Below, piece after piece: positions 1 to 8,162 of a DNA stretch of 16,945 nt (its first letter is position 1; each line of letters opens with the position of its first letter). Source of the DNA: Candidatus Altarchaeota archaeon (GTDB lineage: Archaea; Altiarchaeota; Altiarchaeia; IMC4; QMZM01); NCBI GenBank assembly GCA_016931955.1, contig JAFGDV010000011.1:1-16945 (forward strand), written 5' to 3'. Below the pieces are notes generated by a model. The model searched no databases. It worked only from the letters and a program-made list of their open reading frames with translations, and was not told where the DNA came from. The position numbers and the translations under genes were made by a program.

Positions 1-180
1 AGTCGTATTGTAGCGAATAGAATCTATTCGCTTATTGGCTTCTGGTTGAATCAGGCCTCTTTCAGGTTTCTGTTTTGGTTTCTGGGCTTTATTCGCTTTG
101 AAAATAGGAGGCGATTTTATCCTGCTCTAAGTTATTTCGACTCCAATCGACTTGTCGAAGGGAGTCGGACGGTTTTGAAA
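1..180. repeat. gene-free flank downstream of tRNA-Ser with two hairpins
   Basis: No credible gene is visible here. A perfect 9-bp hairpin with a 3-base loop (AAT) lies at 12-32. A second inverted repeat pairs 138-144 with 161-167 (CGACTCC/GGAGTCG) and holds a small inner palindrome at 147-158. TATTCGCTT occurs twice, at 25-33 and about 91-99. Because tRNA-Ser runs on the minus strand, this stretch is its 3' trailer side. The hairpins are of the same style as those in the arrays on the other side of the tRNA and after tRNA-Arg, but I see no sequence match to them. Confidence 0.5.
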
Positions 181-267
181 CGCCGAGGTTGGGATTTGAA
201 CCCAAGCCTCCCAGGGGGAGACAAGCTTTCCAGGCTTGCGCGTTAGTCCAGGCTCTGCCACCTCGGC
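181..267 (-). tRNA. tRNA-Ser (anticodon GGA)
   Basis: On the minus strand the 7-bp acceptor stem GCCGAGG/CCTCGGC closes the molecule and is followed by discriminator G, the usual serine identity base. The anticodon stem CAAGC/GCTTG encloses the loop CTGGAAA, giving anticodon GGA, which reads UCC and UCU. The variable arm is long (CTCCC-CCT-GGGAG), as expected for a class II serine tRNA. The T arm is TTGGG-TTCAAAT-CCCAA. No CCA is encoded and no intron is seen. No good TATA box lies 25-30 bases upstream; a possible older promoter lies beyond the hairpin array near 553-562. The 5' end is duplicated at 471-490 and, more degenerately, at 516-530. Confidence 0.95.
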
Positions 268-384
268 ATGTCGGAATTAGCCGACGACTAAGGTGCTATC
301 TTCACACCTTCGGTGTTCGATAACACAGATGTTTATTGCCGATTTCTTATCTGTCGACACAAAGTGTCGACCTTTCTTTTCCGT

Positions 385-408
385 GAGCGAGACCTTCGGT
401 CTCGACTC
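385..408. repeat. bulged hairpin shared with the tRNA-Arg array
   Basis: The stem 388-394/398-404 (CGAGACC/GGTCTCG) with loop TTC is extended by GAG/CTC across a single bulged A at 405. The reverse complement of 7895-7918 has the same layout, the same bulge and the same loop. There the outermost pair of the 7-bp stem is T-A instead of C-G. The innermost pair is a T.G wobble when read on the plus strand of that copy. These differences preserve the fold. Confidence 0.75.
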
Positions 409-437
409 AGACAAGACAGCAACGCTGTCTTGTTGAT

Positions 438-466
438 GCACGTTTTTCTTGCTAAGAAAAGGGTGC
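438..466. repeat. G.G-mismatch hairpin beside the tRNA-Ser fragment
   Basis: GCAC/GTGC closes the stem. A G.G mismatch (442/462) follows, then an inner T/C-rich arm pairing with an A/G-rich arm, and a 3-base loop (GCT). One pair, 443/461, is T.G. The copy at 7724-7754 has the same closing stem and the same G.G mismatch, with the wobble replaced by T-A and one extra inner pair. Four bases after this hairpin begins the duplicated tRNA-Ser fragment; the other copy has the same arrangement relative to a tRNA-Arg fragment. Confidence 0.75.
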
Positions 467-470
467 CCAC

Positions 471-490
471 GGCTCTGCCACCTTGGCATG
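471..490 (-). repeat. duplicated 5' end of tRNA-Ser
   Basis: These 20 bases match 251-270 at 19 of 20 positions. The matched part is the first 17 bases of tRNA-Ser plus three bases upstream. A shorter, more degenerate relative is visible at 516-530 (CTGCC-TTGGCAT with a gap). The spacing from the real tRNA end is 220 bases. Only a tRNA fragment is present, so it is not a second tRNA gene. It resembles a target-site or attachment-site duplication. Confidence 0.8.
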
Positions 491-601: not shown

Positions 602-1381
602 ATGGCTGAGAAACCTGAGACAGAGGCGGCTGAAGCCGACGGTGAGTGCGAGGTGGCTGTGAAAGAATGCGAGGACGCGATACTTGAATGCGAGGATGCG
701 TCGCTCTCGTGCAGGTATCTGCTCTCAGTATGCGTCATCATAATCATACTATTGGGTTCGCTGATAATCTACCTCAATCTGCCCTACGACGAAAACGGCG
801 AAAGGTTCGAGAATCTGACAGTGTATTACCTGAAGCCCCAAGGATGTGTTGACTGCGATCTTTCAGCGATGAATGAGGTTTCATCGGAGCTGAGATTAGA
901 TATAGCAGTCGTCGAATCAGACAGCGTCTTAAGGCCGAGCCTATTCGTCGTCTATGGGGATGAGTCCACGTTGGGTCTGGCCAACTCAAAGCTGAATATG
1001 CTATCTCTCCTGTGCTACTTCGCGGATGTTAAGGAATCGTGTGAGTTAAGGGATGAAGACATAAGGTCTGCAGTAGAGTGTTTAAGCAGTTACAACATCT
1101 CGGGAGATGCTGTGGTGTTTTACACCCAAGAAGGCTGTGAACGATGCTCTGACATGATACAGTGGATTAGGCAGTTGAGGGATGAGGGCTATAGTTTTTA
1201 TACAATAGACGTGGACGACGAAGATGAGAGAGAGATCGCTGAGCAATGTCTTAATGATGTTCTTGACTTACACGGTGTTGTGCCTCAGTTCGCCTGCGCC
1301 GCTAAGGGCAGGAACAGTATTGGAGCGTTCACCTCAATCGAACAGATGACGTCTTTCGCTGAAGACTGTAAAGGCAGTTAA
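602..1381 (+). CDS. membrane-anchored tandem glutaredoxin-like protein
   Basis: The 259-residue product has a short acidic N-terminus, one membrane segment (about 39-60) and two thioredoxin-fold domains. Each domain has a CxxC pair (C82/C85 as CVDC, C179/C182 as CERC) followed by a likely cis-proline (P112 and P228, the latter in VVPQF). The architecture suggests thiol-disulfide exchange at the membrane. A single segment with an acidic cytosol-style N-terminus favours the redox domains facing outside, but topology is inferred. The N-terminus has cysteines at exactly 16, 23, 30 and 37, one every seven residues, within ECED-type repeats. The start at 602 fits a short leader behind the TATA box near 570; no Shine-Dalgarno is seen. 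The stop codon overlaps that of convergent leuS by four bases. The substrate is unknown. The tandem-domain layout recalls archaeal protein disulfide oxidoreductases, but those are soluble. Confidence 0.8.
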
Positions 1382-4158
1382 GCTTCGATATAGATTCCCG
1401 GCTTCATAGGTAGTGCGTTCTTTGCCTTGTTTTCCGGGTCATATTCAGGTGTCTTCTGTATCCTAATATCTGCCTTGAATTCCTCTCTGAGGAATTCCAC
1501 GGCATCGGATAACGTGGAGTGCTCTTCTTCCGGGGTCAAGACGATCTCTGGGATCTCGTCCTTCCTCGTTTTCTGCATGAGGGTTGCCGTAAGTTTACCG
1601 TTCTTCCTTATCTCTGGATCCCCCATCGCGTCTTTAATGGTTTTCCCCTCCTTGATTAATTTGAAAAGCCTCCACTTCCACTCAGGTGCGATGTAGACGT
1701 GGATTGTCTTGGGTTCCACTCTGGTTACATCCAGTATGCTCTGTATGTCTTTTAGGAGGGCCTTAATCATCTCCTCCTCCTGGATTATCTGAGGTCTGAT
1801 CCTCTCAGTATCCGGTTCAGGGTATCCTGCAAGCGAGACAAAATCTTTTTCTTTGCCCATCCTCGACCAAAGCTCCTCGCATACGAATGGCGTGAATGGT
1901 GCCATTAGCCTCACCCATTTGTTTACGACAGCCTTTAAGACAGTCGAGTTCGGCTTACAACGCCTAGTATACCATGTGAGGTCGTTCAGGATGTTATAGA
2001 ACGCTGACTGCAATGCTTTTCTCATCTGAAATCCTTCAAGGGCATTGATTGTCTCGCTTATAGACTCCTCAACCCTGCTGAGCAACCACCTGTCTATGTC
2101 CCTCACAGGGATATCGTTTTCCATGCTTAATGCATGATTAACGTGTTCGTAGAACTGCTTCAGTTTCTTCGCGGCATTTTTGACTAACGAATCCCTCCAA
2201 TCGAAGTCCTGCCAAGGCTCTGCGTTACCCATCAAGAACAGTCTGACTGTGTCGCTTCCATACTTCTCTATAGCTTCGCTTAATAGTATGATATTACCCT
2301 TAGAGGAAGACATCTTGTTCCCCTCAAGAAGCCCCATGCCGAAGACAACAATCCCCTTAGGCCAGCAATTTTTCGGGAATAATGCGGTGTGATGAAACAT
2401 GTGAAACGTTAGATGGTTTCCTACCAGGTCCTTGGCCGAAAGCCTCCACTCAGATGGATACCAGTACTGGAACTCGTCTCTGATAGCCTGCAGCCTTTTA
2501 TCGTCTATACCGGCCTTCTCAGCAATCTTCCCTATGTCTCCCTTCCCAAGAAAGACGAAATCGAAGAACTCCGGTTGAAGTCCTCCTGGCTCTATATCCT
2601 TCAAGTGCCGTGAGATCGTGTAGTATGCCATGTATATCGTTGAATCGCTCAGGGGCTCTACCAACCATTTATCATCCCATGGAAGCTTAGTCCCCAAACC
2701 CACCCGGCGAGTGCACGCCCAATCCCTAAGCCAGTCTATAAAGTATGAAAAATTCTGCCGAGTCTCCTCTGGGACGATCTTCATCCCCCCAAGACATTCA
2801 TGGGTTTTTTCCTTCCACCCAGGGTTGCTGTATTCAAGAAACCACTGGTCCTTGAGGATTTTTATGTAACAACGAGTACCGCACCTGCAGACTACTGGGT
2901 TCTGAGAGAACTCGTAGAATATCCCACCATCACCTTTTTCGATTAATTCTCTTATGATATCCTCCCTCGCTTCCCTCACAGGCATACCCCCATAGCCTTT
3001 TATCGACTTCTTCATAACGCCCTTGGCATGCTCTGTACGATAAAGGACCTCAGTGGCTTCCTCCAGTTTCTTATCCTTCTGGTCTCTTATGCCCATCCCT
3101 TCAACGATAACCTTGGCCGGTATGCTATCCACATCATCGGTCTCTATTATGGAGACTGGCTCAATTTCGCTTTTCAGGTCCCTTAAGGCCACATAGTCGT
3201 AGGGTGCATGAGCTGGAACGGACATAACAACACCTGTTGCGTAATCAGAATCGACGAATGGCGCAGGAAGTATTGGGACCTCCCTCCTGCCTATTGGATC
3301 AGTGCAGGACCTGCCGATAAATTCTTCTCCACTAATGCGATCAAGCACGTTGACGATCGTGCCAGCGTGTTTGAGTTTCTCCGCAGCCTCTTCTGAGAGA
3401 AGCCAGGTCTCTCCCCCAACATTCGCCTTAACGTATTCTATATCAGGGTTAAGCCACATATTCGTCACCCCAAATATTGTCTCGGGTCTGAGGGTTGCCG
3501 CCGGCAGTATGATGTCATCGCATCTGAATTTTATCACAGTGAACTCATTTATTGTGGCGTTTTCTCCCTCCAATAGGTCGTGGTCGCCAACAGGGTTATC
3601 GCACCCTGGACAGTACCTCACCGGGTGCTCTCCCTTCTTAACCAACTCTTTACTGTGGAGGGTCTTATACTGCCATTCGACGAATTTACTGTACTGGGGC
3701 GTTATCGTGAGGAACTGTCTGCTCCAATCTATTGAAAACCCCATCTGGGTCATGTTTTCCCTGTATTCATCAGAGAAATGCTTGACGATGTTTTTCGGCT
3801 CGATGAAGGTGTCCAGAACGTTCGCTGGGACCTTATAGAGTTCCCCATATATCCTCATCGCCTTAGGATCCTTTTTCTTTATCCTCTCAGCTATGCCAAG
3901 AACGGGGCTTCCGGTAACGTGCCACGCCATCGGGAACAGGACATTGTAGCCCTGCATCCTCTTGAACCTGGCTATGACGTCCGGGACGGTGTACGTCCTA
4001 CCATGACCTACGTGCATGCTTCCTGAGGGATAGGGGTAAGCAACAGTCAGATAAAATTTCTTTCTGGCGTCTGGGATGGCCTTAAAGACATCCCTCTTGG
4101 TCCATGCATTAACCCACCTGTCCTCCATCGCCTTAGGATCGTATTCCGTCGTCTTCAT
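1378..4158 (-). CDS. leuS: leucyl-tRNA synthetase, archaeal type
   Basis: This 926-residue class I synthetase attaches leucine to tRNA-Leu in the cytosol. The HIGH-type signature is HVGH at 49-52, after YPYPSGSM, and the KMSKS signature is KMSSS at 615-619. The CP1 editing domain, which removes mischarged residues, is intact: the threonine-rich TLRPET motif is at 222-227 and the [10 protein letters not shown] motif with its conserved Asp lies downstream. A CxxC pair at C183/C186 marks a zinc-binding insertion. The length is normal for the archaeal/eukaryotic form. The start ATG overlaps the aminotransferase stop as ATGA, with a GGAG Shine-Dalgarno inside the upstream gene, so the two are translationally coupled. 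It is the last gene of the asd operon. Confidence 0.97.
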
Positions 4159-7590: not shown

Positions 7591-7664
7591 GGGCCTGTGG
7601 GGTAGCCAGGATATCCTAGGGGACTTCGGATCCCTTGACCCGGGTTCGAATCCCGGCAGGCCCG
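7591..7664 (+). tRNA. tRNA-Arg (anticodon TCG)
   Basis: The acceptor stem is GGGCCTG/CAGGCCC with discriminator G. The anticodon stem GGGGA/TCCCT encloses the loop CTTCGGA, giving anticodon TCG, which reads CGA. The T arm is CCGGG-TTCGAAT-CCCGG and the variable loop is short. No CCA is encoded and there is no intron. A TATA box lies about 30 bases upstream. The T-loop-to-3'-end segment and nine bases beyond it are repeated at 7755-7784. Confidence 0.95.
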
Positions 7665-7723
7665 CTAATAGCCCTTTTAGAAAAAGGGCTATCATCCCAA
7701 AAGAAAACGGATTTCTTTTTCGT

Positions 7724-7754
7724 GCACGTTTTTCTTTCCCAAAGAAAAAGGTGC
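7724..7754. repeat. G.G-mismatch hairpin beside the tRNA-Arg fragment
   Basis: The closing stem GCAC/GTGC is followed by a G.G mismatch (7728/7750), then nine perfect pairs and a CCC loop. It is the homologue of 438-466, with the same mismatch position and pyrimidine-purine arm. The duplicated tRNA-Arg segment begins immediately after it, as the tRNA-Ser fragment does at the other locus. Confidence 0.75.
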
Positions 7755-7784
7755 TTCGCAATCCCGGCAGGCCCGCTAATAGCC
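7755..7784 (+). repeat. duplicated 3' end of tRNA-Arg
   Basis: From 7760 to 7784 the sequence matches 7649-7673 at all 25 positions. The match extends left through TTCG if one inserted C is allowed. The copied part runs from the T loop through the tRNA end and nine bases of trailer. The offset is 111 bases. An exact repeat of a tRNA 3' end is what an integration site looks like, but only hairpin DNA lies between the copies. Confidence 0.85.
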
Positions 7785-7894
7785 ATCAGCCTTTCTTTTT
7801 AGAGAGCGCAAAATCTATGATTTTGGCTACCAAAATTGCTTTGCAATTTTGAGTAAAAGAAACGCTGTCAGCAGAACGCAACAGCGTTCTGTCT

Positions 7895-7918
7895 GAGTTG
7901 AGACTGAAGGTCTCACTC
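7895..7918. repeat. bulged hairpin shared with the tRNA-Ser array
   Basis: The stem TGAGACT/GGTCTCA (7899-7905 with 7909-7915) has loop GAA, a bulged T at 7898 and outer GAG/CTC pairs. It is homologous, in reverse orientation, to 385-408. One full pair differs by a compensatory exchange, and one pair (7905/7909) becomes T.G. Confidence 0.75.
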
Positions 7919-7927
7919 AGCGAAAGA

Positions 7928-7958
7928 AAAAGGAATTCGCCAAAGGCGAATTCTTTTT
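7928..7958. terminator. terminator-like long hairpin with T run
   Basis: The perfect 9-bp stem GAATTCGCC/GGCGAATTC with AAA loop is extended by one G.T and four A-T pairs, ending in five T on the plus strand. This could stop transcription from the tRNA-Arg promoter. Archaeal termination needs only T runs, and another run of six T lies at 8019-8024. A terminator role is inferred from shape alone. Confidence 0.35.
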
Positions 7959-8015
7959 GATCAACCTTTTACGAAAAGGTTGGGGTTGATAAGGGAGGGA
8001 ACGCAGTTCCCACAC

Positions 8016-8162
8016 TTATTTTTTCAGGATTATGATGTCTCCCCCGCCTTTCTTGAATTTCCCCTTCTCAGCGCTTCTCCCAGGTATCAGAGAATACAGC
8101 AAACTGAGTAGTAATTACAGGGACTACCATACTTCACTTTATCCTCTAGTAAAGGAGGGATA
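8016..8162. other. spacer with a possible gene remnant
   Basis: Between the hairpin array and the DUF192 stop, the minus strand has an open stretch of 32 codons (8114 down to a stop at 8016-8018). It reads as a hydrophobic piece followed by a basic, glycine-rich tail (GKFKKGGGDIIILKK). It has no ATG and is preceded by a stop. In another minus frame a short ATG-started peptide begins about 8131. It may be the decayed end of a small membrane-protein gene, or chance. Nothing else is visible. Confidence 0.2.

What the first reader, a model, noticed from the sequence alone, without database searches (positions are those of the whole stretch)
369..466. Homologous hairpins at the two loci with pair-preserving changes
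Plus-strand 369-437 aligns with the reverse complement of 7862-7935, including the pyrimidine tract and the GAG/bulged-A/CTC hairpin. Between 385-408 and 7895-7918 one stem pair changes C-G to T-A and another to T.G, while loop and bulge stay. The G.G-mismatch hairpins (438-466, 7724-7754) keep the mismatch and swap T.G for T-A. Compensatory exchange points to selection on the folded form. The modules are in opposite relative orientation at the two loci, so they can be shuffled.
Basis: seen in the sequence. Interest (0 to 1): 0.8.

Follow-up and report, generated by a model that had tools for sequence, protein, structure and literature searches.

The report
Triple-helix hairpin insertions at tRNA genes
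The two hairpin clusters belong to a large family of tiny, gene-less DNA insertions in a group of uncultured archaea (Altiarchaeales); they have repeatedly inserted at the ends of tRNA genes, copying a piece of the tRNA gene each time, and their sequences change in concert as expected if the DNA strand folds into a hairpin and a triple helix.

Summary
Covariation holds on collected copies: 11 of 20 pairs in the double hairpin (H2-H3) change on both sides. The "G.G mismatch" hairpin (H1) is the core: a variable, covarying outer stem; one fixed mismatch (C.C or C.T on one strand, G.G or A.G on the other); a pyrimidine/purine inner stem; then a 3' purine tract (R'). R' is the parallel complement (mirror) of its own hairpin's pyrimidine arm (permutation 0/5000), which no polymerase can template and which points to a selected intrastrand triplex. 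16 of 17 tRNA genes detected carry such modules; 10 of 17 have a partial copy of their own end beside the insert (0 of 24 in control archaea). Related genomes supply empty sites, and in two tRNA genes a module lies in the anticodon loop, in the place of an intron. G.T and A.C are equally rare (15 each), so no strand-specific RNA fold is indicated. Best reading: structured-DNA insertion elements that duplicate 14-41 nt of target, often tRNA ends. The mobiliser is unknown: no reverse transcriptase, Cas1 or Y1 transposase was found in this genome.

The parts
180..268 (-). intact tRNA-Ser(GGA) gene, host of the first insertion
467..490 (-). partial copy of the tRNA-Ser 5' end (CATGCCAAGGTGGCAGAGCCgTGG), upstream flank of the insertion; second copy is 248-270 inside and before the tRNA gene
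   Evidence: the orthologous tRNA-Ser in L091 has the same kind of duplication ending at the same tRNA position
438..466 (-). H1 hairpin, C.C class: outer stem GCAC/GTGC (466-463/441-438), fixed C.C mismatch (462/442), Y arm CTTTTCTT (461-454), R arm (450-443)
385..437 (-). H2-H3 two-hairpin cassette, lying inside the 8-nt turn CGTGC|ACG between H1 and R'
   Evidence: the uninterrupted turn is seen in L125 and L128, and with CCG for ACG in L091
353..371 (-). GTCGACACTTTGTGTCGAC hairpin, also present in the orthologous insertion in L091/L257
7591..7665 (+). intact tRNA-Arg(TCG) gene, host of the second cluster
   Evidence: the orthologous tRNA-Arg locus in L041 has no insertion
7649..7673 (+). 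target duplication copy 1: tRNA-Arg 3' end from the T-loop, plus GCTAATAGCC
7668..7692 (+). ATAGCCCTTTT..AAAAGGGCTAT hairpin directly after the tRNA
7712..7754 (-). second H1-R' unit, inverted: H1 7754-7724 (C.C on the - strand, G.G on the + strand), turn CGTGCACG 7728-7721, R' AAAAAGAAA 7720-7712
7760..7784 (+). target duplication copy 2 (tRNA-Arg 3' end)
7787..7867 (+). H1 CAGC-C-TTTCTTTT / AAAAGAAA-C-GCTG with a 55-nt two-hairpin cassette (7800-7854) in its loop
   Evidence: similar cassettes in L131 and L174
7868..7919 (+). H2-H3 cassette inside the turn CGCTG|GCG
7920..7933 (+). turn end GCG and R' AAAGAAAAAGG, parallel complement of the Y arm TTTCTTTT
7933..7953 (+). H4 hairpin GAATTCGCC-AAA-GGCGAATTC
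   Evidence: family members
7959..7982 (+). H5 hairpin GATCAACCTTTT-ACG-AAAAGGTTG, often the end next to the target duplication in related genomes
7989..8019 (+). H6-type hairpin ATAAGGGAGGGAACGCAGTTCCCACACTTAT
   Evidence: family members

Best explanation
The clusters are mosaics of short, gene-less insertion elements of an Altiarchaeales lineage. The core (H1-R') is a single-stranded DNA fold: a hairpin with a pyrimidine/purine stem whose 3' purine tract can fold back as the third strand of a class II (purine-motif) intrastrand triplex. In the C.C class the outer stem and an 8-nt hairpin turn compete for the same bases, so the element may switch between an extended hairpin and a triplex. Copies insert with duplication of 14-41 nt of target, mostly at tRNA genes: at the 5' side the copy runs from mature position 1 into the D arm; at the 3' side from the T-loop to the mature 3' end; in two genes a module lies in the anticodon loop, where an intron would be. 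The tRNA stays intact. Shown: dispersed repeats, covariation, mirror covariation, duplicated tRNA ends, empty sites. Inferred: that the DNA strand folds in vivo, that the fold is the unit recognised or the polymerase block that causes insertion, and that the extruded tRNA-gene cloverleaf is the target. The mobilising activity is not identified; an unknown recombinase, or host replication with template switching at structured DNA, is most likely.
For: Dispersed copies in the own genome and in related Altiarchaeales, none in 56 other genomes for the H5 pattern. H2-H3 covariation. H1: 8 of 10 pairs with two-sided changes in 23 copies; 44 distinct H1 with one internal mismatch, C.C 29, C.T 14, C.A 1; purine run within 30 nt 3' in 35, 5' in 5. 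R' matches the parallel complement of its own Y arm: mean 0.926 versus 0.795 for the antiparallel complement and 0.811 permuted, 0/5000; within-genome permutations 0/5000, 0/5000, 3/5000; turn pairs 62 of 66 Watson-Crick, permuted maximum 59. Duplicated tRNA ends: 10 of 17 own tRNA genes versus 0 of 24 controls, p = 1.7e-5; 41 of 116 in seven Altiarchaeales genomes, 5' copies always upstream and mostly starting near position 1, 3' copies always downstream starting in or just before the T-loop. Empty versus filled orthologues for tRNA-Pro and a GTT-anticodon tRNA (5' side and anticodon loop), and a 37-nt anticodon-loop insertion in tRNA-Gly; tRNA-Val; tRNA-Arg.
Against: No triplex or expression data exist; R' tracts are A-rich and short, and copies are related, so permutation values overstate independence, although within-genome permutations agree. 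The H1 set for one search was hand-picked from copies with the mismatch; some pyrimidine hairpins lack it. In C.T copies the mirror tract begins with C instead of G and no turn hairpin was tested. The other conserved hairpins H2-H6 are not explained by the triplex. Some insertions are shared by distant species (tRNA-Glu in G000, G008 and G015), which could mean retained function rather than mobility. All genomes used are draft assemblies or single-record assemblies of uncultured archaea.
Confidence: 0.68

Rival explanations
1. Replication template switching: forks stall at tRNA genes and at triplex/hairpin DNA; the nascent end copies a hairpin element and returns upstream, leaving the element flanked by a duplicated tRNA end. 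No dedicated enzyme is needed. (A rival for the agent of insertion, not for the identity of the elements.)
For: Variable duplication length 14-41 nt, tandem amplification of the units (L157, L158, L041, L297), no known transposase family shared by the genomes; purine-motif triplexes are reported to arrest polymerases (PMC4666352).
Against: Recurrent element left end (H1 right after the duplication) and pinning to mature tRNA ends suggest end and target recognition.
Confidence: 0.3
2. A structured non-coding RNA or transcription terminator/processing element, selected as RNA.
For: Hairpins directly follow tRNA genes and covary; the complementary strand could form a pyrimidine-motif triplex, which RNA allows (PMC4666352).
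Against: G.T and A.C equally frequent on the tRNA strand; modules occur in both orientations, at CDS starts and ends, and in tRNA anticodon loops; on the tRNA-sense strand the triplex is mostly purine-motif, reported not to form in RNA; no Rfam match.
Confidence: 0.12
3. Integrative elements of a tyrosine recombinase using tRNA 3' ends as attachment sites, reduced to remnants.
For: 3' copies run from the T-loop to the 3' end, like known tRNA attachment blocks (own knowledge); a tRNA-Thr 5' fragment with an insertion is reported in Caldiarchaeum (PMC3293823).
Against: Each site duplicates its own tRNA or CDS sequence while the element ends are shared, inserts can be as short as 34 nt (L157), and coding-gene starts and ends are also duplicated.
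Confidence: 0.07
4. Non-autonomous elements moved by a casposase (Cas1) or by target-primed reverse transcription.
For: Casposases give 14-15 bp duplications at tRNA 3' ends (PMC6977970); variable duplications resemble reverse-transcription insertion.
Against: No Cas1 or RVT_1 in the own genome; RVT_1 in 0 of 8 and Cas1 in 2 of 8 genomes searched; 5' copies and duplications up to 41 nt do not fit a casposase.
Confidence: 0.08

Closest known systems
PIT / BoxC / TMECO intrastrand triplex motifs (class II purine motif; PMC4666352)
   Same: Strand order Y arm, R arm, reverse-Hoogsteen R' with mirror symmetry; dispersed, multi-copy, mostly intergenic; short first loop.
   Different: A/T-rich instead of G/C-rich; closing outer stem with a fixed C.C or C.T mismatch; R-R' turn of 8 nt that itself pairs (C.C class); flanked by target duplications and concentrated at tRNA genes, whereas that paper found no association with mobility.
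REP / BIME / REPIN elements with RAYT transposases (PMC3116915, PMC2817692)
   Same: Short imperfect palindromes with a conserved mismatch, mosaic clusters, inverted pairs.
   Different: No Y1 transposase in the genome, the conserved neighbour is ACG/GCG or CATCCC plus a purine tract, and long target duplications are present.
Repetitive hairpin-forming elements of mitochondria (PMC2800124)
   Same: Gene-less hairpins invading intergenic regions, amplified as clusters.
   Different: Here tRNA-end duplications, a mirror third tract and an archaeal host.
Caldiarchaeum tRNA-Thr disruption (PMC3293823)
   Same: 5' tRNA fragment upstream of an intact tRNA with an insertion between, and a tRNA intron gain.
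   Different: That is one locus with a recombinase-encoding insert; here many tRNA genes and tiny hairpin inserts.
Casposons (PMC6977970, PMC4046053)
   Same: Duplication at the 3' end of tRNA genes.
   Different: No Cas1 in this genome; variable and longer duplications, also at tRNA 5' ends and coding genes.

Membership tests
Class II intrastrand triplex motif (PIT/TM) | Y-loop-R-turn-R' with R' the mirror of R | tested here: met
Class II intrastrand triplex motif (PIT/TM) | TMECO consensus (G/C-rich 9-nt stems, 3-nt second loop) | tested here: not met
   A/T-rich stems, 8-nt turn; consensus from PMC4666352
Class II intrastrand triplex motif (PIT/TM) | Triplex forms on the isolated strand | not testable with these tools
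   needs CD, NMR or DMS
REP/REPIN (RAYT-mobilised) | Imperfect palindrome with conserved mismatch | tested here: met
REP/REPIN (RAYT-mobilised) | Y1 (TnpA-REP) transposase in the genome | tested here: not met
   PF01797 absent in G000, and its distribution does not follow the modules
REP/REPIN (RAYT-mobilised) | Insertion without target duplication (own knowledge of IS200/IS605-type transposition) | tested here: not met
   14-41 nt duplications
Casposon-derived MITE | Cas1 casposase in the genome | tested here: not met
Casposon-derived MITE | Fixed 14-15 bp duplication | tested here: not met
   14-41 nt
Retroposed element (SINE-like) | Reverse transcriptase source in the genome | tested here: not met
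   RVT_1 0 of 8 genomes
tRNA-integrating tyrosine-recombinase element | Integrase gene and matching att block on the element | not tested
   integrase family not searched; no integrase gene fits in the short inserts seen
Known Rfam RNA family | Match at gathering score | tested here: not met

The most novel reading that the evidence does not exclude
A family of mobile DNA elements recognised by shape, not sequence: a bistable hairpin/triplex on a single strand that inserts at extruded tRNA-gene cloverleaves (ends and anticodon loop), copies the tRNA end each time, and can become a tRNA intron.
Probability: 0.3. Interest if true: 0.9.

Novelty: new variant of a known kind. Interest (0 to 1): 0.76.

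Why it matters
Intrastrand triplex repeats have been known in bacteria for decades without a natural role or evidence of mobility. Here three-strand covariation gives evolutionary evidence that such a fold is selected, and the copies carry insertion scars with orthologous empty sites. The same elements appear in the anticodon loop of tRNA genes, where a mobile hairpin could become a tRNA intron; this would bear on the open question of how archaeal tRNA introns and tRNA gene fragments arise.

Tried and rejected
Rfam at gathering and relaxed thresholds: only the two tRNAs, then chance matches. RAYT/IS200 origin: rejected because Y1_Tnp is absent or wrongly distributed. Reverse transcriptase and Cas1: absent in this genome. 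Viral carriage: pattern scans gave two H5-pattern and six H2-H3-pattern contigs whose surroundings do not resemble the modules, read as chance. A regular-expression count of H1 plus R' was too restrictive and was replaced by hairpin detection. Strand-specific RNA fold: G.T = A.C = 15.

Full report
Setting. The window is a whole 16,945-base contig (C22) of a 1.55 Mb, 46-contig genome. The leucyl-tRNA synthetase gene (1378-4158) has its most similar listed relative, 71% identical, in Ca. Altiarchaeales isolate B52_G2, and other Altiarchaeales/Altiarchaeota follow at 61-66%. The window has two tRNA genes, tRNA-Ser(GGA) at 180-268 on the - strand and tRNA-Arg(TCG) at 7591-7665 on the + strand.

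Observation. The similarities are beyond chance: 369-437 versus the reverse complement of 7862-7935 scores 51 (best of 500 dinucleotide shuffles 29), and 438-466 versus 7724-7754 scores 36 (shuffle maximum 26). The base changes named are present.

Copies. The two clusters find 13 and 58 BLAST matches in the genome, in intergenic clusters and at contig ends. Recurrent hairpins are H2 (CAAGACGC family), H3 (CGAGACC), H4 (GAATTCGCC), H5 (CAACCTTTT), H6 (ATAAGGGC) and H1, the long hairpin with a mismatch. Flanks of own tRNA genes hold 91 hairpins against 10-16 in shuffled flanks. The pattern GATCAACCTTTT-N3-6-AAAAGGTTG occurs 7, 6, 3, 4 and 6 times in G000, G002, G008, G009 and G013, in none of 56 other genomes and never as the reversed control.

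Secondary-structure covariation. Seventeen H2-H3 copies: 93.0% of cells paired, 11 of 20 pairs with two-sided changes, 28 two-sided cells against 7.9 in shuffles, and 29-45% pairing when partners are slid. Twenty-three H1 cores: 8 of 10 pairs with two-sided changes, 46 cells against 13.1, while position 5/16 is never paired. The mismatch result is partly by selection of the set, which took every pyrimidine-arm hairpin, found 44 distinct ones with a single internal mismatch (C.C 29, C.T 14, C.A 1) and 23 without exactly one, several of which are not H1. On the tRNA strand G.T and A.C are equally frequent, 15 each, so nothing favours an RNA fold of one strand.

Three-strand covariation. 35 of the 44 H1 are followed within 30 nt by a purine run, 5 are preceded by one. 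This tract R' repeats the parallel complement of the same hairpin's pyrimidine arm: CTTTTCTTT with GAAAAGAAA, TTTCTTTTC with AAAGAAAAG, CTTTTCTCTTT with GAAAAGAGAAA, TTTTTCTTTCT with AAAAAGAAAGA. Mean matched fraction is 0.926, against 0.795 for the antiparallel complement and 0.811 after permuting loci, 0 of 5000; within G000 0/5000, within G002+G009 0/5000, within the others 3/5000. In the C.C class the turn from R to R' is 8 nt, CGTNNACG, in nearly all copies, with co-variants CGCTGGCG and CATTGATG; 62 of 66 possible turn pairs are Watson-Crick against a permuted maximum of 59. A mirror relation is not produced by copying or by hairpin correction, so I take it as selection for a class II purine-motif intrastrand triplex as defined in PMC4666352. 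The central GT (or GC, AT) of the turn can pair either with the outer 5' arm or with the turn's own 3' arm; both are kept, which suggests two alternative folds. That step is inference.

Reading the window with this model. Locus 1, - strand: tRNA-Ser 5' copy (490-467), H1 (466-438), half turn CGTGC, H2-H3 cassette (437-385), half turn ACG, R' (381-371). Locus 2, + strand: H1 arms 7787-7799 and 7855-7867 with a 55-nt cassette in the loop, half turn CGCTG, H2-H3 cassette (7868-7919), GCG, R' (7923-7933). Hairpin 7724-7754 with R' at 7720-7712 on the - strand is another, inverted unit between duplicated tRNA-Arg ends. Cassettes sit in the hairpin loop and in the turn.

Insertion scars. Direct duplications of 13-41 nt of host sequence flank many clusters, also at a CDS start (L125) and a CDS end (L159). 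For tRNA genes, 10 of 17 in this genome have a partial copy of their own end nearby against 0 of 24 in control methanogens and other archaea, p = 1.7e-5. In seven Altiarchaeales genomes 41 of 116 do, after I removed matches between neighbouring tRNA genes. 5' copies are always upstream and start within a few bases of mature position 1 (exceptions: one at -9, three extended by tandem repeats, and L157 at -19), ending in the D arm or just beyond (about 11-34). 3' copies are always downstream, start in or just before the T-loop and end at the mature 3' end or run on into a shared H1. 16 of the 17 tRNA genes detected carry modules.

Empty and filled sites. tRNA-Pro: three units in G000, none in G001. 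A GTT-anticodon tRNA (L185, probably tRNA-Asn): in G000 an insertion upstream and a 72-nt anticodon-loop insertion made of modules, both absent from G001. tRNA-Gly: G002 has a 37-nt H1-like insertion in the anticodon loop, absent from G009. tRNA-Val 5' side: filled with a 15-nt duplication in G002, empty in G000. tRNA-Arg: filled here, empty in nzgw1 (L041). Splicing of the anticodon-loop insertions is inferred, not shown. Some insertions are shared: tRNA-Ser (G000, G009), tRNA-Glu (G000, G008, G015).

Mechanism. Shown: family, folds by covariation, mirror tract, duplications, presence/absence. Inferred: DNA folds on single strands during replication or transcription, and insertion happens where tRNA-gene DNA is itself structured, since breakpoints fall at the base of the acceptor stem and in the D arm, T-loop and anticodon loop. 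The agent is open: Y1 transposase, reverse transcriptase and Cas1 are absent from this genome, RVT_1 is absent from all eight searched, Cas1 is in two of eight. An unknown recombinase or template switching would both fit. Tyrosine recombinases were not searched.

Comparison. It works like the PIT/TM triplex motifs in strand order and mirror symmetry but is not the TMECO family. It resembles REPs in having a mismatched palindrome and mosaic clusters but fails the transposase and no-duplication criteria. The Caldiarchaeum tRNA-Thr case (PMC3293823) is the nearest precedent for tRNA fragments with insertions, at a single locus. No paper linking Altiarchaeota to such repeats was found in the library searched, which is limited to open-licence papers.

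Limits. Draft assemblies, related copies, small control set, A-rich third tracts, no biochemistry.

Noticed in passing
L244 (G002, tRNA-Ile) versus L247 (G009): A 102-nt anticodon-loop insertion in tRNA-Ile present in one species and absent in its congener, not obviously made of hairpin modules.
   Followed up: partly
window 7800-7854, L131 about 870-915, L174 about 1690-1770: A two-hairpin cassette GCAAAATC..GATTTTGG / CAAAAYTGC..GCARTTTTG recurs, at two loci inside the loop of an H1 hairpin.
   Followed up: partly
L157, L158, L041, L295, L297: Near-perfect tandem repeats of a leader or gene piece plus one hairpin (for example 68-bp and 129-bp periods), suggesting amplification after insertion.
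   Followed up: partly
G000 genome: Only 17 tRNA genes score in a genome estimated 92% complete; many contigs end in these repeats, so missing tRNA genes may lie in unassembled repeat clusters.
   Followed up: no
tRNA-Glu in G000 (L140), G008 (L265), G015 (L295): Same breakpoint after about position 28 and the same H1 variant in three species, yet the 5' copies share bases specific to their own tRNA: concerted evolution or repeated insertion at one site.
   Followed up: partly
L312 (G008:C106), L313 (G013:C11): Cas1 genes found in two of the eight Altiarchaeales genomes searched; whether CRISPR or casposon was not examined.
   Followed up: no
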